The notes below the pieces were generated by a model that saw nothing but the letters and a program-made list of their open reading frames with translations, was not told where the DNA came from and ran no database searches. The position numbers and the translations under genes were made by a program. A stretch of 64,000 nucleotides of DNA from Macrocystis pyrifera (Eukaryota > Sar > Phaeophyceae > Laminariales > Laminariaceae): positions 13,905,427-13,969,426 of the forward strand of contig JASSKH010000010.1 of the NCBI GenBank assembly GCA_031763025.1, given 5' to 3'. Each line of letters starts with the position of its first letter. Positions within the stretch are counted from its first letter, which is position 1. Shown piece by piece: positions 2,296-52,015 of the stretch.

Positions 2296-3977
2296 TGTAG
2301 TAGACCCCGATGGTATAGAAGTAAGAGAAGAAAAATGCAGGACTGCATCGAAAGACAGCTTGTCTTGTTCAGGAGACTTTATGTCTTTGTTGTCGTGTTA
2401 TTCCCATTTATGATGAGAGAAAGTGGAGCAGTTCAAGAATGATTCGATTGAGGCTTGATTCGAGGTATCAAGCCCACTTTCCCCCTTCCATTGACCCGCT
2501 AGAAGGGTAAATACACTTGCCCGAGGAACTTTTCTCGGACGCTGGTATACTCTTTTCCTATCGATGATCATGACCAAAGGAGTAGCCAACCCTAGGATAG
2601 TTCTGTAGCCTACTAAAACCCAATTATCCGGGTCATCTAAGGGAGGTCTGTCCTAAAAACATTGCTTGCATCCTTACGAAAGCCTTAGTAGCACCGGCTG
2701 TCCTTTCTACGTGATATTCTGGGCTTTGATTCTTATTTACCATGGGAAACTTCAGAGCTCGAGAGCAATCTTCGGGTGTTGCAGGATTCGATACCACGGG
2801 CTATCTCATAACCACTCCTGCGTACAGCCCGATACTATATCATATCACATTTGCCCACCCTGGATAGTCGTATATGCAGATCACGACGGTCGATGGATGA
2901 TATCGGACTTTATCCGAAAGATACCGGGAAGGGAGGTCGAAGACGTGTCTATTCGAAACAACAAAATAAGGCTGTAGATTTCCCCACACCTCGTAGTGAG
3001 GCCTAGGTGTCACGGTCAGTGTTACTGTCAGAAACTCCCGCTGAAAGAGGGGCCAAAAATCGAAACAGAAAAGGACAGGGGCGGGGCAGGGGGCTCAGGT
3101 CGTGTCCTGGTCAACGGTGGGAGCGAGTCGCCCGTCTTCACGACGGGGCTGTCCCTCGAGCTCAGGGGCAGCTGTGTTGTCAGCACTGCGGCAGCAGCTA
3201 GGATCCCGTCGTTCGCGGGTCCCATGCTGTCGCTGATGGTACACACGTCTTGTGATGAGCGCGGATGGAGCCGCCAGGAGGGTGTCGGGGCGGGCTCAGG
3301 GTGCGATGGCCCGAAGGTCGAGGCAGGAGGGTCTTGCTGTAGTCCGAAACCGCTGGTAGCCGTAGTCCTACTGTCGACGCCAAGCGTAGTAGAGCTCGAT
3401 GATAGAGGTAAGGGAAGTGGAATTCAGGAACTGGCTCGGGAGGCAGTTTCTCTTGTTCAGGAGACTTCTTCCTTTGTTGTCGTGTTATTCCCCTTCATGA
3501 GATAAACGGAAGCAGTTTGAGAATGATTCGATTTGAGGCTTGATTCGAGGTATCAAGCCCACTCTGCCCCCTTCCATTAACCCACTAGTAGGATAAATAT
3601 ACTTGCCCGAAGAACTTTCGTCGGACGCTGGTATACCCTTCTCCTATCGGTGATCATAACCAAAGGAGTAGCCAAACCCTAGGATAGTTCTGTAGCCTAC
3701 CAAAACCCAATTATCCGGGTCATCTTGTTTTTAAGAGAGGTCTGTCCTCAGAACATCCCTTGCATCCTTACGAAAGCCGTAGTAGTACTGACTGTTCTTT
3801 CTACCGAGAGAAACTTCAGAACCCCGGGAATACTCTCAGAGTGTTCAGGGGTTTGATTCTTATTTACCAAGGGAAACTTCAGAGCCCGAGAATAATCTTT
3901 GGGTGTTGCAGGCTTTCATACTACGGGCTATCTCGTAACCACTTCTACGTCCAGCCCGATACTATATCATATCAACA
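2296..3977. mobile_element. Miniature LTR retrotransposon (TRIM-like), copy A
   Basis: Two long direct repeats flank about 535 bp of internal sequence. The left LTR is 2296-2849 (TGTAGTAG...CATATCACA) and the right LTR is about 3385-3977 (...CATATCAACA). They align over their length, for example at TGTTCAGGAGACTT, AAGGAGTAGCCAA and CCAATTATCCGGGTCATCT. The 4-bp CGAG occurs just outside both ends (2292-2295 and 3978-3981), a plausible target duplication. The first 220 internal bases match copy B (2850-3075 against 28108-28340). The rest, 3075-3384, is GC-rich and unrelated to copy B. No gag, protease, RT or integrase frame exists, so movement would have to be in trans. The orientation is not certain. 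Confidence 0.8.
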
Positions 3978-43716: not shown

Positions 43717-43791
43717 TACGAGGGGCCATAGTAAATAGAACCAAATGTTGTTAGCAAAATAATGGAAATATATGGGTGTTTGTGTGCACCG
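43717..43791. mobile_element. Left part of a MITE split by the retroelement
   Basis: TACGAGGGGCCATAGTAAAT...AACCAAATGTTGTTAG...GTGTTTGTGTGCACCG matches the 57821-57927 MITE in reverse orientation but stops about 30 bp short of its end. The missing end lies at 51309-51337. The last five bases, CACCG (43787-43791), are duplicated at 51304-51308. Confidence 0.75.
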
Positions 43792-44069
43792 TGTTAAGAT
43801 ATTGTCTTGTATGAGATTGAAAGCCCGGTAACTACCTGGGTTCAGTCACTGGGAACGTATTTGTAGTACTTGGAAGGCGTATCTTAGATGAAAAACCAGG
43901 GGTTTTCCAGAGGAGCACGAGCTTGGTCTCAGTCTCCGCGTGCACGAAAGGAATAAAACTGCTCTTCTTCTGTAGCTAAGCAAACAACACATGTGAGTAC
44001 AATGTTTACCGACTTAAAAAGCAGACCTGTCCAGGGATACAAAGTGTCCCGCAACCGTTGATCTTAACA
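43792..44069 (+). repeat. 5' LTR of the NADAR retroelement
   Basis: It begins TGTTAAGAT and ends ATCTTAACA, a perfect 9-bp inverted terminal pair in the canonical TG...CA form. No second copy occurs in the window. A T-rich stretch that could hold transcription signals follows at 44095-44160. Confidence 0.7.
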
Positions 44070-44071
44070 AG

Positions 44072-44090
44072 TGGCGTCTTCGGCTTAGGA
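44072..44090 (+). promoter_or_regulatory. Putative tRNA primer-binding site
   Basis: TGGCGTCTTCGGCTTAGG starts two bases after the LTR end. It begins with TGG, the complement of a tRNA 3' CCA, at the expected place. The matching tRNA is not identified. Confidence 0.45.
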
Positions 44091-44184: not shown

Positions 44185-46932
44185 ATGATGGAGACTCAAG
44201 AGGTGGAAGGGTCTGCTTCCCGTCACGGTGGCCGAGCCATTGAGGCCCAGGGCCCCTCAGTGCCCCACCGCCGAAGGCCCGTCGATGTAGATCGAGTGCC
44301 TTGTACAACAGACCAACAAGTGGAGCACGAGTCTAGGCAGGAGCCCCATCAGAACGACGTGGATCGAGCGCCTTGTACAACAAACCATGAGGAGAAAGAG
44401 CTTCGACCGGAGCCCCCTGACGGGGCCCGAGCAGCCTCCGCTAGACGGACCTTATCCAAGACCCCTTCTGTGCCTCGCTCGGCTGAGCGAGCTCTGCCGC
44501 CCAAGACAACTGGACGCCCCGCTCCTTCGAGAGCGCGACGCGCGCCACCAGCCAGGCCTTGGGTCTTGCAGCATTGTCTCCCCACTCGTGCCCTCTGCTG
44601 TCCAAGCCACCTGGAAGCCCCCGCTCCGCTGAGCGCGTACCCAGCCAGCCCGTGGAGCCAGCTGCGTTTGCTATGGGCCGGAGCACGTCGGACAAACCTG
44701 GACGCAGCGATCTGCAGGCATCCCAGTTGCGCTCTGCGCCGCTGGATCTACCTGCTTCTGGGCCAGATGAGAGAGTATTTGATACTGTTTTTCCGCCTCG
44801 CATTCCACTGTTGTTCGACTCTGCTCGTACTCGAGGATGACCACGCGTGATGTTGCCACTCCTGAAAAACAATTTCCGTGCCGCGGCCACACGATGGCAC
44901 ACTGGATTTCGTTGTTGAGCTTGCTTCCCGCGCTGCTCTATTAGGAGCTACAAACAGAGATCCTGGAAATTACAGTGCTGGTTCGAGTTTTCATGCTGCT
45001 GATAGCGGGAGCACCACGGCCGCTCGCGATTTTTTTCCCGCTCCTCGCCCACAAGATGGCACACTGGATTTCAGTATTGCACCCTTTTCGCCCGCTGCTG
45101 TTACCACCCACGCCGATCCCGCTGGAAATTCCACTACTGCTGCGAATCTTGATACTGGTGTTAGAGGGGACGATGCTTTTGATAGGCCCCCCAGTACCGT
45201 AGTTCCCGCTGCTGTAGCTACCCGTGACGATTCTTCTGCGAGTTCTCGTCCTGCTGCGAGTTTTAATACTGCTGTTAGTGAGGACGATGCTTTTGATAGG
45301 CCCCTCAGTACCGGAGTGCCCGCTACTGCGGCTACCCGCGACGTTTCTGCTGAGAATTCTCGCCCTGATGCGAGTTTTAATACTGCTGTTAGTGAGGACG
45401 ATGCTTTTAATAGGCCCCCCAGTACCGGAGTGCCCGCTACTGTGGCTACCCGCGACGTTTCTGCTGAGAATTCTCGTCCCGATGCGAGTTTTAATACTGC
45501 TGCTCGAGTGGATGGTGTTTTTTGATAGGCCCTCCAGTACCGACGTGCCCACTGCTGTAGCTACCCGCGGCGATCCGGTTGAGCATTCTCGTTCCGATGC
45601 GAGTTCTAGTACTGCTGCTACGAGGCTTTTGATAGGCCCTCCAGTATCGGGGACGCGCCAACACCAACAACACTTGCTGTTAGTATAAATATAAACCGCG
45701 ACAGCCGCCACCCTATCACGACACCACCTGGGGTCGAGGCTCGCTCCCCAAGTGCTCGTAGTGCCCGCCGAATGGCGCGCCAGGCCTTGATCACAGCTAT
45801 ACAATTTGCTGAAGCACAAGCTGCGGCTCCTGCCACCGCTGTTTCTGCGCGCCACGACCCTGAGAACCGCCATTTCCCGTCCTCCCCTGCCTCGGTGTTC
45901 CCCCCCTGCCCCGGTGTCGCCCTTTGCCCCGGTGTTTTCCGCCCGCCCCCGCCCCAGCGTGTCACGGACAACAAAAGCATGGGAGGGATCACCCAGCCCG
46001 GCCAGGTCTCCCAGCGGCCTGAGGACTTACGGCTCCTCCCCCTCTTCGGGAGCTAGGACACCCGAGCCCGCGGGCCCCACGTCTCTGGACGACGCCGTGG
46101 ACTTCGAGCCCCCTGACTCAGAGGACGAGCGGCTGGCTACCGAGAAGGCCGCAGAACCGGCGGCCGAGGACCCGGACAGTGCCCAGGCCCCCCCCCAACT
46201 ACCTGGAGCGTGGGCCTCCCTCTCGCCGCAGAGCAGGCGGCTGTGATCCAGCGTTGGGCTACCCAGTCGAGCCTCGACGCGGGGACAACAGCCGATCGCC
46301 CCGCGCCCGGCCAGGCCGACACTGTCACGGCCGTGCGGGCTCCTGATGCCGCGGACACCCACCCCGACGTCCTCGCGGCCGAGCAGGCTTTGGTCACCGC
46401 CGAGGCCCTTGGGACTGCCTCGGCGACAACGGCTAGTCGTCGAGCGCAGACGCGTGTGTCGGCCGAGCTCGAGGCTGCAGCTGCCGCCCGCGCCTCCACG
46501 GCCGCCGCCGCCGTCGCCACGGCTGCCGCCACGGCTTCTGAGGAAGCCGCTCGCTCCGCCTCTTGTGCGCGAGACTCCATATCTCGAGCCAGTGAAGCGC
46601 TGCGGGCTGCCTGGGCTGCTGCTTCCTCCGCGACCAGCCGGGTCGCCGAGACGAGGGCCCCAGCGGAGAACCTTCCACTCGCCTCTTCCATAACAAAGGC
46701 CGCTCCAGCTCCCGGCCTTGGCCCCACGGATCCGTGTTCACCCGCTGCCATCGCAATCGACGCCCGGACCAAGCATCCCGGGGATTTGGACTTCTTGCAG
46801 GGGAGTGTGGCCTGCATGGCGGCCGAGCCAAACCCGTGCTTCCCCCCCGAGGAGGCGGCCCTGGTGGTCTCTGCAGCTCGCCGCCTCCGACGCGAGATGC
46901 CGGCCGAAGGCCTCTCGGTCCACGACGCTTGA
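44185..46932 (+). pseudogene. Retroelement gag, N-terminal region (Pro/Ala-rich, repetitive, frameshifted)
   Basis: Frames 44185-44850, 44878-45525, 45224-45688, 45806-46246 and 46210-46932 follow one another on the plus strand and together look like a single broken coding region. The start contains a duplicated DVDRAPCTT-type motif. The next part carries the 38-residue tandem repeat described separately. The last part (46210-46932) is an Ala-rich predicted helix or coiled coil of about 240 residues (AEQALVTAEALGTASATTAS). One clear break is an extra T in the run at about 45517-45522, which ends the repeat frame one unit early. The function is presumably structural, as gag N-terminal or spacer regions are. 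No enzymatic motif is seen. Confidence 0.55.
45142..45640 (+). repeat. 114-bp coding tandem repeat (38 residues)
   Basis: Units start at 45142, 45256, 45370, 45484 and about 45598, exactly 114 bp apart. Each encodes variants of SFNTAVSEDDAFDRPPSTGV followed by PATVATRDVSAENSRPDA. Because 114 is a multiple of three, the repeat keeps the frame until the indel near 45520. Confidence 0.85.
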
Positions 46933-47014
46933 CTGGAAATGTCAGACGATTCCTGGTCGGCCCAACAGCGCCGGGCCTACACAATGATTCTGGTGGTGAG
47001 CCTTCGGAAGGCCC

Positions 47015-49198
47015 ATGACGCTTCTTCCACCACCGTCCAATGGCCGAGACCGGCCGCGTACCAGCTTCATTGCAGGCGGTGGTCGCGCCGCCCCCCAGGA
47101 GCCCTCCCTCCCTTACTCGGGACCGGAGGCTGGACACCACCCCACCTCCCCCAGCGGACACCGGGGAGCTGGCGACAGCTCTGTTGCCGGAGATCGCTCT
47201 CGCTGCCGCGCTGGCGACCAGGGCCGCCAGCGCCCGAGGGTGGGAGGGGATTCGGCCGGCCCAGACGGCAGGCTCCGCCGGGGCTCGGGCGGGGAAATGG
47301 GCGGCAGTTCGTCTCGGCGCAACGGGGCTGGACGGCGAAGAAACCGGGGGAAGGGGAAGGAGAGGTCGGGTGACGGCCGATACGGCTCACGGGGCAACTC
47401 TGGTCGAGCTACTTCCCCCAGCTCTTCCTCGGACGGCGACACCAGAGCCCCCGTTCCAACGAAGCACGCAACCAGCAAGAGGCAAGTGATTCCCTCGCTG
47501 ACTGAGGTTGCTTCTTCCGCCGCGCGTCTTGGTCGTTTGACCATGCCCGATGACCGCGCCTTGCCTGTGTCATCTAACCTTGCTCACGACCGAATTTCGG
47601 CGATCGACTCCGCCGCCGCCACCGCCGCAAAACAGCACACTGCCGACGTACAACGGGCGTACAAACGCCTGGGATTGAAGGATATTTCGCGCATTTCTGT
47701 CTTGCCTTTCCCCTCCTCGATCGACCCTTGCGAGACCGCGCAGCAACTCATGCGTTCGGTCAAGGCCTCCGCCTCTGATATTCTCATGATGTGCAACGAT
47801 GGCAGCCATGAAGGCCTTAGTTCTACTAATTGGATCCCCGGTTGGGGGTACCCTCTCAAGAAATCCTTCGCGTGCGCCATCACGCCTGACAAGCCTACGA
47901 CCGCTCCTCTCACTACCTTGATGGTTTATTGTTTTGGACAGGTGTCGCGCGCCCTCGCAGCAGGATCGTCGGGACCGGAGGCGTTCACGCTCCTCCTGAG
48001 GTTGCTGAGCAACCACTTCGACCGCACCAACACGGGGGCCAGCTACACCAAGTTGCATAATTTTGGCGTGGCTAACGGGACCCCTTTTTGAGATTTTAGT
48101 CGTGCATTGCGAGGGGTGGTGTCCGCAGCGACGGGGACTGAGCGTGTTTTGGCACCGGGGGTGGGGGGGGTGGAGGTAGTTTTGGAGGTAGTTCGGATGG
48201 CAGTGAACGAGCAGTACCCTAGCTTGATGCCCACGCTGTACCCGGGAGTTTTGGCTACGGTATCGAGGCCGTTCGGCACTTTGGACGCCATGTGGTTAGC
48301 GTTCGAGACACTTGCAAATAATAAGACACTTGCCGTCAACGGCGAAAAATATTTTTCTTTGCCTGCTTCTTCGACGGGTGCGCGGTCATCCGCCCCGTCG
48401 GGGCCTCGGCCCGCTAATATTGGTCGCGGCCAGGGCCGGACGTTTCTCCAGTCGTCTTCTTGGCAGACGGGATCGCGCAATAATCCGCTTGTGATGAATG
48501 TCCACAAATCCATCCCTGACTGCCTCGACCCGTGGCTTGACACCTCTTCCAACTGCTGGCCCCTTGAAGAACACCACTATGCCGAAGCTCACGCCGTTTG
48601 CATGTCCATCCAGACCGAGGATCCTCCCCTCTGGAGCGGCCTACTTTCATCGTCCGCTCGCACAGCCGCCCTCAGCGAAAACCGAGGACGCTGTTTAAAC
48701 TGTCACGAAGACACACACTCTCTTCGACAGTGTAGACACCCCTTTTTAAACCTTAGTGGTATCTTGAACCCCGACCTCGGAACGCTCGGCGACAACGGCG
48801 AGGCGTTCCGTCGTTGGCAAGAACGCATGGTCAGACACCGCCGCGAGAACAATTCACGACCGAACAAATACAACCGAAGAAACACAGGCGTCGTCCCGGC
48901 CCCTCGCGTGGGCAACACCACGGCCAGGGTCAGCAACACAGACAAGGTGATGGCTACAACACACATGCGGCACGAGGACACCAGCAGTCTCACTCCGGCC
49001 ATCATGGTAGTTCGACCGCCCCTACCTCTTCCGCACCGGCTCCCGTCTCGGGGGTTCACTACGGTGCTTCGCATACCTCGGGCGGAAACCCGAATGGACG
49101 CCAGCCAGGCACCTTCCGCGCCGGTAACTGACAGGTCGACGGCGGTTCGGCTTCTCCTGACCGCCCGCCGCCAGCATTGTCGGGAGAAAAAACCTTGA
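47015..49198 (+). pseudogene. Retroelement gag: capsid-like region and CCHC zinc knuckle, with in-frame TGA
   Basis: The first 130 residues are Arg/Gly/Ser-rich. A capsid-like helical region follows (SNLAHDRISAIDSAAATAAK, then FGQVSRALAAGSSGPEAFTL and LLRLLSNHFDRTNTGASYTK). It continues in the same frame across a TGA at 48089-48091 (GTPF, stop, DFSRALRGVVSAATGTERVL). This looks like a Trp codon mutated to stop. The region VRMAVNEQYPSLMPTLYPGV leads to a Cx2Cx4Hx4C knuckle at 48692-48733 (CLNCHEDTHSLRQC), the nucleic-acid-binding motif of gag nucleocapsid. The frame ends at 49198 and coding continues in another frame. Known role of the family: packaging of element RNA in cytoplasmic particles. 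Confidence 0.7.
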
Positions 49199-51303
49199 TT
49201 TCACAAGATGCTCACGTCCCAGGCTCGCTCAGTACTCCGCTCCCGCCCCGCGCGTTACTCCGTACTTCGGACCGACGCAGCGACTCAGCTCCACTGCTTT
49301 TTCCGGGGAGCCCTCGGACGCCTTCCCCGACGTCGCGAGCCCGCGCCTCAAACGCCGCTCCCCTCAACCTGGACACGAGAGCAGGCGCCAGAAACGCCTC
49401 TCTCCCAAACCACGCACCGCGCAACACGACGGGTGTCGCGCCATCGCGTCGTTTATTTCAGCGAGGGTATCCCCCTCCTACACCTCCCGGCCATGCGGTG
49501 GCGGTCGGTTTGAGGTGCGGGAAGGCAAACACCGAAACCCCGAGATCTCGGTTGAAGCTCGACTCGGCGTTTCCTCGCAATAAGGGTGGCCGCTCCACCC
49601 TTTTTCCTATTAAGGAGGAGTCGACAAGATTAGCTACCTCGTCCCCCTTCCCCACCAGGTCTACAGGATGGAAGCCCTCTCCGGTGGGCCCTTTGTTGCC
49701 CCCCACCCGAGCACCGTTCCTGAAGACGTCTACAGGGTCTGCAGGCCCTCTTTCGTCTTCGCGCACGCCACTCCACGTGCGCAGCGCTCCTTCGGCTCCA
49801 GTGGAACAGGAAAAACCTGACACTGTCCGTCGAGCTAGTGGTGACTCCACGGCCTCCGGTCAGATCAACCGGACAGCATACCCGTTAAATTCGGAAGAAT
49901 CGCAGCTCTCGTCAAGCAGAACGGGCTCAGAGCCCTCTGCCCCCTTTGGTCCAGGACAGATATCATCGGGCGCAGCAAGAGAACCTTCTGGCGATTTTTT
50001 GCCTACGGGCAATGGTGACACAGAGCCAGTATACGTGGAACCGGACTCGTCTCGTGCACCAGGGGCTCAGTGTTCTCAGAGAAGCACACCCCCCCCCCCA
50101 CACGCCGCAACTGCGGCCACCGACGACTCGGCACCGTCGGTTTTTGACCCTACTCTCGAGTATACAACGGAGCGAGTGGTACTGTTCTGGCAGCCCCCCT
50201 CTTATTTTTCGCAGTGGTCCCCCTCGTCTTTTGTCGTCGACGATGTATCATATTCCTGCGCGGAGCAGTATATGATGGCTGAAAAGGCTCGCCTTTTCCA
50301 GGACCACGGCACAGCGGAGCGGATTATGGCCTCGCCAGACACCCCCGCGAGCACAAACGCCTCGGTCGAGGCGTGCATAACTTCGACTGCGCTATCTGGG
50401 ACCGTGTTCGGGAAGGCGCCGTCCTTGCTGGTAATTTTGCCAAATTCTCGCAGAACCCGGTCATGAAGCAGCACCTATTGAGCACTGGCACCAAAATTTT
50501 GGCTGAAGCCAGCCCTTTTGATACCGTGTGGGGCATCGGTCTGCGGGCAGACGACCCCCAAGTTCACGACCCCTCTCGGTGGCATGGAAAAAAATTCCTC
50601 GGTAAAGCTCTTTCCGCCGTTCGCGACACCCTCCGATCAAGTGAGGCCGGGTTGGCACACCCTGCCTCCTCTCACCAATTCTGCACCCCAACCAGACCTG
50701 ACAGAATTCATGAGATTACACCAGCGCCGCCCCGCCCTTTGGCCGTGGCCCGCGCTTGCCCAGGTCCTCCTTTGGAGTTTTCGACCTATTTTTCTGACGC
50801 GCCGGCTGATCACAGCCCCGAGATTTTGGCTGTCGCACCTAGTGTCAACCCCTCCCTCGCGCAGCCAGAACACGGCCCCTGCCTCGTCGGGGGCACCATT
50901 ACCCTCGATGACGCCTCTTTTACAACGAAAATCGCGATTCACAGCGGAGCTGGCGTGCTTGCACCTTTTGGTTGCGTGGCGCTTCTCGACACTGGCTCCC
51001 CGCAGACTTTCATCCGACGAGATGTTTTGGATCGCATACACTCGGTTGGTTCGGCATCCCTCGCGTGCGAGCAGAAAGGCGCCCCTCGTTCTTGGGGGGG
51101 TTTTGGCGAATCGGCCCCTCTGAAGACTTCGACGAGTGTGCGCCTGAGCGTCCAATTTTTTTTTCGAGAAAATGAGCCTACTTGCTCCCTCGCAGTTTGG
51201 GCCTGCGTGGTCCCCCCCTCAGTGATGCAGCATGCTGTACTATTGGGACGTGACAGCTGGATGCGCTTTAATAGCCGCTCCTACCGCTCTCTGCCACCTC
51301 GGC
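49177..51303 (+). pseudogene. NADAR domain fused to a retropepsin-like aspartic protease
   Basis: A Ser/Pro/Arg-rich linker (49177-50160) precedes a full-length NADAR (YbiA/DUF1768) domain at about 50167-50640. Its landmarks are FSQWSPSSFVVDDVSYSCAE, QYMMAEKARLFQDHGTAERI, then in the -1 frame EHKRLGRGVHNFDCAIWDR, LAGNFAKFSQNPVMKQHLL, EASPFDTVWGIGLRADDP and WHGKKFLGKAL. The Glu in CAEQYMM and Lys in AEKA match conserved family positions. The frame changes at a C5 run, 50342-50346. A spacer leads to the protease: VALLDTGSPQTFI (DTG at about 50988) and the C-terminal HAVLLGRDSW flap-distal motif at about 51231. The coding sequence stops at the CACCG junction (51304-51308) before any RT motif. 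Characterised NADAR proteins remove ADP-ribose from guanine bases; whether this one does is unknown. Confidence 0.75.
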
Positions 51304-51308
51304 CACCG

Positions 51309-51338: not shown

Positions 51339-52015
51339 ATATTTTATTCTAAGGTACACAATTTATTCGTCGCATGTTCAACCACACAAACACGCCTCGA
51401 TTACGAGTGAAATCGCATGTGAGAAGCGGTGTTCGAAAGGCGTCAGTATCATACTAAAGTCAGTATAATCGATAAAAACAAAGAAGACGATTGATGCTTC
51501 AATAGTTCGTGCGGAAACCGGCACAACTACAGCAGTATTATGAGGATTCTCTCCGTCAACTTATCCCGTTAGCTATCTTTTATTACAAGGTACTCAATAT
51601 ATTTGTTCCCTTTCGACCACAAAAACACGCCTCGATTACGAGTGAACAATTACGGGGGTCCATAGTGAATATGACCTATGGTATACATAAAAAAACCTAT
51701 ATGTTTACCTATGTTTACTAACAACGGTATTTGGTCCTATTCACTATGGTCCCCCGTAATACCATATATGTGGCAAGCGGTGTTCGAAAGGCGTCAATAG
51801 TATAGTAAAGTCAGTATAATAGAGAAAAACAAAGAATACGATTTATGCTGTAATATCTCGTGCGGAAAACGGCATAACTACAGCATTACTACGATGATTC
51901 TCTCCCTAAAAAATATGTATAGAGAGATAATATCGTTGGCTATCTTTTGATACAATGTACTCATGCATTCGTCGCATTTTCAACCATACAAACACGCCTC
52001 GATTATGAGTAAACT
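51339..52015. repeat. Tandem repeat of about 225-bp units, interrupted by a MITE
   Basis: Units share CAAACACGCCTCGATTACGA, GCGGTGTTCGAAAGGCGTCA, CTAAAGTCAGTATAAT, AACAAAGAA and CTCGTGCGGAAAAC. About two and a half units are present. The MITE at 51650-51759 lies between the GATTACGAGTGAA and GCGGTGTTCG parts of one unit. One further unit is at 43440-43680. Confidence 0.7.
51650..51759. mobile_element. MITE of the TTACGGGGGACC family, best-preserved ends
   Basis: The ends TTACGGGGGTCCATAGTGAA and (reverse complement of the right end) TTACGGGGGACCATAGTGAA differ at one base. The interior is AT-rich with the common ACATAAAAAAACCTATAT...TATTTGGTCC core. TA follows the right end, but the left flank is AA. 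Confidence 0.8.

What the first reader, a model, noticed from the sequence alone, without database searches (positions are those of the whole stretch)
49177..51303. NADAR (ADP-ribosyl-guanine hydrolase-type) domain built into a retrotransposon gag-protease polyprotein
Between the gag CCHC knuckle and the DTG protease there is a complete NADAR domain with its family landmarks (QYMMAEKARLF, FAKFSQNP, WGIGLRADDP, LGKAL). Established knowledge: bacterial NADAR proteins reverse guanine ADP-ribosylation and act as antitoxins to DarT-type ADP-ribosyltransferases. Inference: the element may carry an activity that cleans ADP-ribose from its RNA/cDNA or counters a host defence based on nucleic-acid ADP-ribosylation. 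I am not certain whether such fusions have been reported.
Basis: partly seen in the sequence, partly recalled or inferred. Interest (0 to 1): 0.88.

Follow-up and report, generated by a model that had tools for sequence, protein, structure and literature searches.

The report
Retrotransposons carrying an ADP-ribose-removing enzyme domain
The window holds a broken copy of a jumping gene whose relatives in the same genome carry a well-preserved enzyme domain of a kind known to strip ADP-ribose from guanine in RNA and DNA; such elements have already been reported in a brown alga, but why they need the domain is still unknown.

Summary
A NADAR domain (PF08719) lies between a gag zinc knuckle and an aspartic protease at 50185-50636, split over two frames. 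This copy is dead: frame broken inside NADAR, no match to fetched relatives past 51304, no reverse transcriptase in the window. It is no one-off capture: 150 NADAR places were scored in the genome, and reading from the RT side 94 of 100 examined copies carry at least part of NADAR about 2 kb upstream. The order is gag-NADAR-PR-RT-RNaseH-integrase. Two copies of a neighbouring Gypsy lineage have gag and PR but no NADAR. Between families the domain is under purifying selection (omega about 0.13) with eight ADP-ribose-pocket residues invariant. The predicted fold matches the oomycete NADAR-ADP-ribose structure (TM 0.82). It is YbiA-type, not DarT-antitoxin type. Such elements were published for Ectocarpus in 2025 (PMC12477816): new member of a known kind. 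Likely role, inferred: the element's own hydrolase for ADP-ribosylated guanine in its RNA or cDNA.

The parts
43791..44084 (+). LTR-like piece at the 5' side of the element
   Evidence: 94-97.5% identical stretches lie 5' of NADAR in L016 and L024 and 3' of the pol frame of L017 (L030:3367-3645); LTR identity inferred from occurrence at both sides, no LTR pair in the window
45090..45620 (+). 114-bp tandem repeat array upstream of gag
   Evidence: the repeat finder, 3-4 copies at 79-87%; lies inside the stretch shared with L012
47000..48091 (+). gag, N-terminal open frame
   Evidence: open frame of 363 aa; homologous to the gag of the NADAR-less sister copy L177, E 1.2e-12
48092..49198 (+). gag, C-terminal open frame
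   Evidence: open frame of 368 aa; homologous to sister-lineage gag, E 1.5e-11 in L177 and 4.8e-9 in L178
48692..48733 (+). CCHC zinc knuckle CLNCHEDTHSLRQC
   Evidence: sequence
50185..50340 (+). NADAR domain, N-terminal part (holds the Glu and Lys equivalent to E43 and K50 of 8BAU)
   Evidence: Pfam PF08719 E 3.9e-12; tblastn to L017 NADAR residues 1-52
50343..50636 (+). NADAR domain, C-terminal part, in another frame (the stretch in which R79, W89, R93, E125, D130 and W133 of 8BAU have their equivalents)
   Evidence: Pfam PF08719 E 4e-31; tblastn to L017 NADAR residues 53-150
50781..51173 (+). retropepsin-like aspartic protease region (DTG at about 50988)
   Evidence: 92% identical to the protease region of L017; motif LLDTGSPQTFI 50982-51014; Pfam only at E 0.35
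51304..51304 (+). 3' breakpoint: last base shared with relatives; RT, RNase H and integrase are missing
   Evidence: alignments to 13 relatives end at 51304 and pol residues after 604 of L017 have no match in the window

Best explanation
The window holds a decayed, 3'-truncated copy of a Ty3/Gypsy retrotransposon from a lineage, abundant in this (probably brown-algal) genome, whose Pol begins with a YbiA-type NADAR domain followed by protease, RT, RNase H and integrase. Shown: domain order, presence in nearly all copies examined, purifying selection between families, conserved ADP-ribose pocket, predicted fold, and absence of the domain from two copies of a neighbouring Gypsy lineage with homologous gag and protease. 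Inferred: NADAR is made as part of Gag-Pol, is probably enclosed in the particle and freed by the protease, and hydrolyses the N-glycosidic bond of ADP-ribosylated guanine in the element's RNA or nascent cDNA, so that an adduct that would block reverse transcription or translation is removed before integration.
For: NADAR in both frames of the window copy; 150 NADAR places scored, all over cut-off, of 1264 candidates; NADAR + RVT_1 + RT_RNaseH in one open frame of 1696 aa in L017, integrase zinc-binding domain downstream in other copies. RT-first test: of 114 RT places, 100 examined, 94 with at least part of NADAR at the expected place. Purifying selection between four families: omega about 0.13, lnL gain 89.8 over omega = 1. 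Eight ligand/catalytic positions invariant in 11 family representatives while 34 of 150 columns are (hypergeometric 3.5e-6). AlphaFold model pLDDT 95.7, best PDB match 8BAU, NADAR with ADP-ribose, TM 0.82. Published: the NADAR representatives tested in PMC11833690 removed ADP-ribose from guanosine in RNA (E. coli YbiA more weakly than E. coli C7 NADAR), and NADARs were inactive on phosphate-end and 2'-OH adducts (abstract and passages); the oomycete YbiA-type NADAR acts on guanine-ADP-ribose (passages). NADARs of animal RNA viruses tend to sit in polyproteins with the polymerase (passages; fold matches to nidovirus polyproteins).
Against: No enzyme assay of a retrotransposon NADAR is known to me. 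No DarT homologue found in the genome; one PARP exon-sized match and a Tpt1/KptA gene show ADP-ribose enzymes but none known to me to modify guanine. D86, a contact of the adenine-proximal ribose in 8BAU, is not conserved. TIGR02464 names the family after riboflavin-intermediate N-glycosidase activity, so another substrate is possible. NADAR changes 2.1-4.4 times faster at amino-acid level than RT, so constraint is weaker than on the polymerase. Near-identical copies within a family show little constraint (omega 0.55-0.87 from few differences), as expected of decay after insertion. E. coli YbiA does not protect against DarT1 in cells (PMC11125620 passages). The two copies read of a neighbouring Gypsy lineage do without NADAR.
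Confidence: 0.42

Rival explanations
1. The domain is an active N-glycosidase but its substrate is a small ADP-ribose or nucleotide derivative (a host signal or a toxic metabolite), so the element manipulates host ADP-ribose metabolism rather than cleaning its own nucleic acid.
For: Phage NADARs have been argued to act mainly on low-molecular-weight ADP-ribose derivatives (PMC9503650 passages). The domain scores over the TIGR02464 cut-off, riboflavin biosynthesis intermediates N-glycosidase. Pocket residues would be kept whatever the leaving group.
Against: Placement next to the RNA-binding knuckle and at the head of Pol suggests action inside the particle (inference); RNA-virus NADARs embedded in polyproteins were argued to act on macromolecular ADP-ribose (passages).
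Confidence: 0.3
2. The domain no longer works as an enzyme and serves as an RNA- or ADP-ribose-binding or structural module of Gag-Pol.
For: NADAR tolerates faster change than RT and D86 varies; an N-terminal position in Pol would suit a structural role.
Against: All eight other ligand and catalytic residues, including the two Glu and the Lys, are invariant across 11 family representatives; a binding-only role would not obviously need the catalytic Glu.
Confidence: 0.15
3. A one-off captured host or bacterial fragment carried as a passenger in this copy.
For: The window copy is broken and truncated.
Against: Found at the same place in 94 of 100 examined copies and in divergent families and other sources; purifying selection.
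Confidence: 0.01
4. The domain protects the host cell as well as the element, an addiction-like or mutual benefit arrangement against ADP-ribosylating toxins of bacteria or viruses.
For: NADARs act as antitoxins in bacteria (passages); stand-alone NADAR proteins of brown algae are related, 56-62% identical.
Against: No toxin gene is known to be linked to the element; no DarT homologue found.
Confidence: 0.07

Closest known systems
NADAR-carrying Gypsy lineage of Ectocarpus sp. 7 (e.g. Gypsy-12_Ec32), Dinatale et al. 2025, PMC12477816
   Same: [quoted passage not shown] bacterial-like NADAR. An Ectocarpus protein (P0128) has NADAR, RT, RNase H and integrase with 71% RT identity to L017.
   Different: Another, unnamed, larger genome (537 Mb); several divergent families (NADAR 46-58% identical between four of them); the window copy is a dead fragment. 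Added here: NADAR-less sister lineage, selection, active-site test, structure. A C-terminal chromodomain, reported there, was not seen in the six frames scanned.
Tx1 LINE ORF1 proteins with NADAR, Crassostrea gigas (reported in PMC12477816)
   Same: Retrotransposon with a YbiA-family NADAR domain.
   Different: Non-LTR element, ORF1, divergent domain; not examined here.
Phytophthora nicotianae NADAR (8BAU) and E. coli YbiA (2B3W)
   Same: Fold (TM 0.82 and 0.74); for 8BAU the YbiA-type Glu and seven other pocket residues.
   Different: Stand-alone proteins; the 8BAU ribose contact D86 is not kept in the elements.
NADAR domains in polyproteins of nidoviruses and other RNA viruses (PMC9503650)
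   Same: NADAR inside a replication polyprotein next to a polymerase; fold match.
   Different: No reverse transcription, unrelated polyprotein, distant NADAR (21-26% identity in the named RNA-virus rows).
DarT1-NADAR (DarTG1) toxin-antitoxin
   Same: NADAR superfamily; reaction on guanine-ADP-ribose.
   Different: BC4488 subfamily with Asp at the catalytic position; paired with DarT; bacterial (passages).

Membership tests
NADAR superfamily (PF08719) | Profile match over the curated cut-off | tested here: met
   47.2 and 108.9 bits against 35.1 for the two pieces
NADAR superfamily (PF08719) | Five-helix fold with two small beta sheets, as in 8BAU / YbiA | tested here: met
   Model of the L017 domain, pLDDT 95.7, TM 0.82 to 8BAU
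NADAR superfamily (PF08719) | Conserved Glu and Lys of the active site (E43, K50 in 8BAU numbering) | tested here: met
   E in 33 of 33 rows, K in 32 of 33
NADAR superfamily (PF08719) | ADP-ribosyl-guanine hydrolase activity | not testable with these tools
   needs a biochemical assay
YbiA subfamily | Glu at the position of E125 (Asp in BC4488, His in phage NADARs; PMC11543638) | tested here: met
   E in 33 of 33 rows; TIGR02464 over cut-off in four family representatives
BC4488 subfamily / DarTG1 antitoxin | Asp at that position and a DarT partner | tested here: not met
Ty3/Gypsy LTR retrotransposon | RT, RNase H, integrase in this order with an aspartic protease upstream | tested here: met
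   RVT_1, RT_RNaseH in L017; Integrase_H2C2 over its cut-off in 5 of 6 downstream frames of other copies, rve in 4 of 6, all four below its cut-off; protease by DTG motif and homology. The window copy itself has only gag, NADAR and PR.
Ty3/Gypsy LTR retrotransposon | Two long terminal repeats | tested here: inconclusive
   LTR-like piece on the 5' side in the window and the 3' side of L017; no pair within one copy seen
NADAR Gypsy lineage of PMC12477816 | NADAR at the N-terminus of Pol in all families of one RT lineage | tested here: met
   RT tree: 15 lineage rows, P0128 of Ectocarpus among them, on one side of a branch, support 91/96 (the P0129 record begins at the protease and shows no NADAR); at least part of NADAR in 94 of 100 examined RT copies
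NADAR Gypsy lineage of PMC12477816 | C-terminal chromodomain on integrase | tested here: inconclusive
   none matched in six frames scanned, some cut by the end of the locus

The most novel reading that the evidence does not exclude
Stramenopile cells restrict retrotransposons by ADP-ribosylating guanine in their RNA or cDNA, and this Gypsy lineage spread because it gained, once, a bacterial-type NADAR as a counter-enzyme carried in its particle; the faster change of NADAR than RT would reflect an arms race.
Probability: 0.12. Interest if true: 0.88.

Novelty: new member of a known kind. Interest (0 to 1): 0.42.

Why it matters
NADARs are the only hydrolase family found to reverse guanosine ADP-ribosylation in RNA (PMC11833690 abstract), and their role in eukaryotes is unclear (PMC11125620 passages). 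A retrotransposon lineage that keeps a full NADAR pocket under purifying selection, next to a sister lineage that lacks the domain in the copies read, is a natural experiment for asking whether nucleic-acid ADP-ribosylation touches retroelement RNA or cDNA. It makes the question testable with a 150-residue domain and an established oligonucleotide assay.

Tried and rejected
One-off capture: rejected, because NADAR sits at the same place across copies and families. DarT-antitoxin subtype: rejected on the Glu/Asp position and on TIGR02464. A stand-alone host NADAR gene in this genome: a search with the Pylaiella protein P0058 gave 150 places at 48-59% identity, many of them the same places as the element copies; an intron-split gene is not excluded. 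A window LTR pair: not found. A clear donor: not found. In the NADAR tree the five rows that I labelled algal (four with brown-algal names, one unnamed EukProt protein) form one clade (100/99); the nine rows that I labelled bacterial (five with bacterial names, four, P0010, P0012, P0022 and P0067, by assumption) lie with 63 unlabelled rows in a 72-row clade (95/80) that holds no row labelled element or algal; element rows do not form one group there, the tree is unrooted and its bootstrap had not settled. GTDB genome matches (80 kept of 169) are 49-57% identical and spread over many phyla; 27 viral contig loci are 42-55% identical. Paper searches, seen as listings: NADAR + retrotransposon, 104 papers, 20 listed, many by words beginning with 'nadar' such as author names, only PMC12477816 opened; DUF1768 + retrotransposon, 0; NADAR + transposable element, 7, of which only PMC12477816 looks relevant by title; YbiA + retrotransposon, 1, the same paper; a six-term search, 10 of 1329 listed; ADP-ribosylation + retrotransposon + reverse transcription + PARP + macrodomain, 0. 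The pdb_via structure comparison was not run.

Results against my reading: 6 of 20 RT copies read upstream have no NADAR by tblastn in the 801 bases examined (L044, L048, L054, L056, L058, L059). L059 is cut inside the end of NADAR; the other five hold DNA with no match to the L017 pol frame, as expected of truncated copies or insertions, but a NADAR-less variant is not excluded there. 14 of 114 RT copies were not examined. Three of the 14 positives (L051, L057, L061) hold only part of NADAR. The 25 places were picked by eye and had no separate control. Rows dropped for stops before the codon analysis: L034 (NADAR and RT), L005 and L008 (PR), L009, L015, L023 (RT); rows with too short a single piece, the window NADAR and L032 among them, were also left out there. 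Synonymous sites are near saturation between families, so omega is approximate; within families omega is 0.55-0.87 from few differences.
Full report
What is in the window. The region 49177-51303 is the 3' part of a larger decayed element. Its DNA matches fetched relatives elsewhere in the same genome at about 93-97%, in the longest case from window 44675, up to 51304, where the matches to 13 relatives end. Inside it lie two gag frames (47000-48091 and 48092-49198), a CCHC knuckle at 48692-48733, the NADAR domain and an aspartic-protease region with LLDTGSPQTFI at 50982-51014. NADAR is hit by Pfam PF08719 in two frames with E 3.9e-12 and 4e-31; the pieces are 50185-50340 and 50343-50636, so this copy carries a frame break inside the domain. 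No match to the pol frame of L017 beyond residue 604 exists in the 64 kb, so RT, RNase H and integrase are gone. A piece at 43791-44084 recurs on the 5' side of L016 and L024 and on the 3' side of L017 and is probably part of an LTR.

The genome. The window lies in an unnamed 537-Mb assembly. That it is a brown alga or near relative is inference from the nearest named element and stand-alone NADAR proteins (Ectocarpus, Pylaiella, Scytosiphon).

The element family. A NADAR search of the genome gave 1264 candidates, of which 150 were scored, all over the family cut-off. L017, used as reference, has one open frame of 1696 residues with NADAR 233-382, a DTG protease motif at about 498, RVT_1 886-1043 and RT_RNaseH 1140-1242. 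Of six frames scanned further downstream in other copies, five have Integrase_H2C2 over its cut-off; rve appears in four, each time below its cut-off. A sequence search finds 8BAU (E 3.1e-15) and YbiA (E 3.7e-5) as the only solved relatives up to E 0.001.

Is NADAR a regular part? The search was turned round and started from RT. Of 3982 RT candidates 114 were scored. For 54 of these a listed NADAR lies 1.2-3.0 kb upstream on the same strand, against 0 on the opposite strand and 0 after shifting by 100 kb. Two further NADAR searches gave 25 more, picked by eye and checked by script without a separate control. One more (L034) was read directly, making 80. Of the remaining 34, 20 were fetched and read upstream: 14 hold at least part of a NADAR, in pieces or partial, and 6 do not. 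Those 6 hold DNA unlike pol, except that L059 starts in the last residues of NADAR. So 94 of 100 examined carry it; 14 were not examined.

When was it gained? Eight other RT_RNaseH places were fetched. L176 (46% RT identity to L017) and L171 (47%) are nearer to the NADAR lineage than the other six (26-34%). Upstream of these two (L177, L178) there is a homologous gag with a CCHC knuckle (E 5e-9 to 1e-12 against the window gag) and a homologous protease, but no NADAR by tblastn (both) or by Pfam in three frames (L177). The other six were not read upstream. From knuckle to protease motif is about 1.38 kb in L177 and 2260-2311 nt in the five copies of the NADAR lineage measured (L010, L012, L013, L023, L028). 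In the RT tree of 20 rows the 15 rows of the lineage (among them P0129, whose record begins at the protease) lie on one side of a branch with support 91/96 and L176 is next to them; long branches make the exact place of L176 unsure, and L171, L172 and L173 were left out because their open frames were too short. Gain in the NADAR lineage is the simpler reading; loss in the sister is not excluded.

Selection. Four families with open NADARs (L017, L035, L033, L019; 46-58% identical in NADAR, 74-86% in RT) were compared codon by codon. One omega per gene, estimated by IQ-TREE, is about 0.13 for NADAR, 0.10 for PR and 0.03 for RT; fixing omega at 1 costs 89.8, 79.6 and 471 log-likelihood units. Nonsynonymous distance in NADAR is 2.1-4.4 times that in RT for the six pairs. 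Near-identical copies within a family give omega 0.55-0.87 from few differences, as decay after insertion would. Synonymous differences between families are near saturation, so the values are rough, but neutral change between families is excluded.

Active site. The ligand and catalytic residues of the Phytophthora NADAR (E43, K50, R79, D86, W89, R93, E125, D130, W133) were taken from passages of PMC11543638 and placed on L017 by the alignment, with the numbering offset inferred from the motif spacing. In 33 rows (25 copies of this genome, 8 proteins from elsewhere) all but D86 are conserved, with one exception (K to M in L023); among 11 family representatives the eight are invariant while 34 of 150 columns are. 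E125 marks the YbiA subfamily; BC4488 (DarT1-associated) NADARs have Asp and phage ones His (PMC11543638 passages). NCBIfam puts four family representatives over the cut-off of TIGR02464, riboflavin biosynthesis intermediates N-glycosidase.

Structure. AlphaFold2 on 63 aligned sequences gave pLDDT 95.7 and pTM 0.89 for the L017 domain. Foldseek returns 8BAU, NADAR with ADP-ribose, E 5.9e-13, TM 0.82, and YbiA, E 7.3e-9, TM 0.74, and nothing else below 0.001. In BFVD, 58 viral models match below 0.001; the 50 rows shown include giant viruses, phages and polyproteins of nidoviruses.

Elsewhere. A search with residues 225-560 of the L017 Pol, in which 7993 candidates were scored, found 11 proteins; eight (P0121-P0128) have NADAR with RT and RNase H, one of them named Ectocarpus sp. 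CCAP 1310/34, one from EukProt, the rest unnamed; P0129 has RT but begins at the protease; P0130 and P0131 have NADAR without RT. NADAR alone finds 1406 proteins, 120 listed, including stand-alone ones with algal or bacterial names at 56-62% identity. In a tree of 132 rows the five rows that I labelled algal (one of them an unnamed EukProt protein) form one clade and the nine that I labelled bacterial (four of them by assumption) fall in a 72-row clade without labelled element or algal rows.

Host ADP-ribose enzymes. No DarT (PF14487) match; one exon-sized PARP match; Tpt1/KptA in four pieces on one contig and one on another. Introns limit these searches.

Function. The abstract and passages of PMC11833690 report that NADARs, E. 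coli YbiA among them though more weakly, remove ADP-ribose from guanosine in RNA and are inactive on phosphate-end and 2'-OH adducts; PMC11543638 passages report guanine-ADP-ribose hydrolysis by the eukaryotic YbiA-type NADAR. With the pocket kept and the domain placed between the nucleocapsid knuckle and the protease, the best reading is an in-particle hydrolase for ADP-ribosylated guanine in the element's RNA or cDNA. The enzyme activity, the packaging, the protease release and the existence of the modification in algae are inferred, not shown.

Literature. PMC12477816 (abstract, passages and section 5 part 1 read; [quoted passage not shown] The finding is therefore a new member of a known kind. 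In the listings I saw no report of the NADAR-less sister lineage, of selection on the domain or of an assay; most papers counted were not listed, and supplements were not open to me.

Noticed in passing
L009, L010, L011, L013, L014, L015, L017, L022, L023, L024, L028 (e.g. L022:7473-8095): A tandem array of about 126 bp (42 codons) and variable copy number lies in pol of the window's family between RNase H and integrase.
   Followed up: no
45090-45620: A 114-bp tandem array upstream of gag, 79-87% identical units.
   Followed up: no
3079-3367: A stretch about 72% identical, on the opposite strand, to DNA just upstream of NADAR in another family (L018:3388-3667 and others), so a second related fragment may lie in the window.
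   Followed up: no
51417-51910: Two 143-nt direct repeats (85%) and smaller repeats soon after the 3' breakpoint of the element, perhaps another mobile element.
   Followed up: no
P0013, P0049, P0058, P0076, P0038: Stand-alone NADAR proteins of 209-252 residues, four with brown-algal names and one from EukProt, in at least two (P0013, P0058) with a Cys-rich N-terminus, forming one clade related to the element domains; their function is unknown.
   Followed up: partly
P0130: A 2816-residue protein from an unnamed source with a NADAR domain near its N-terminus and a precomputed FHA domain.
   Followed up: no
L028 (1931-2938 and 2942-5122) against window 48092-49198 and 49132-50466: In L028 the gag frame and the NADAR-protease frame are in phase with one stop between them, while in the window and L012 they overlap in different frames; how Gag-Pol is made is unclear.
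   Followed up: no
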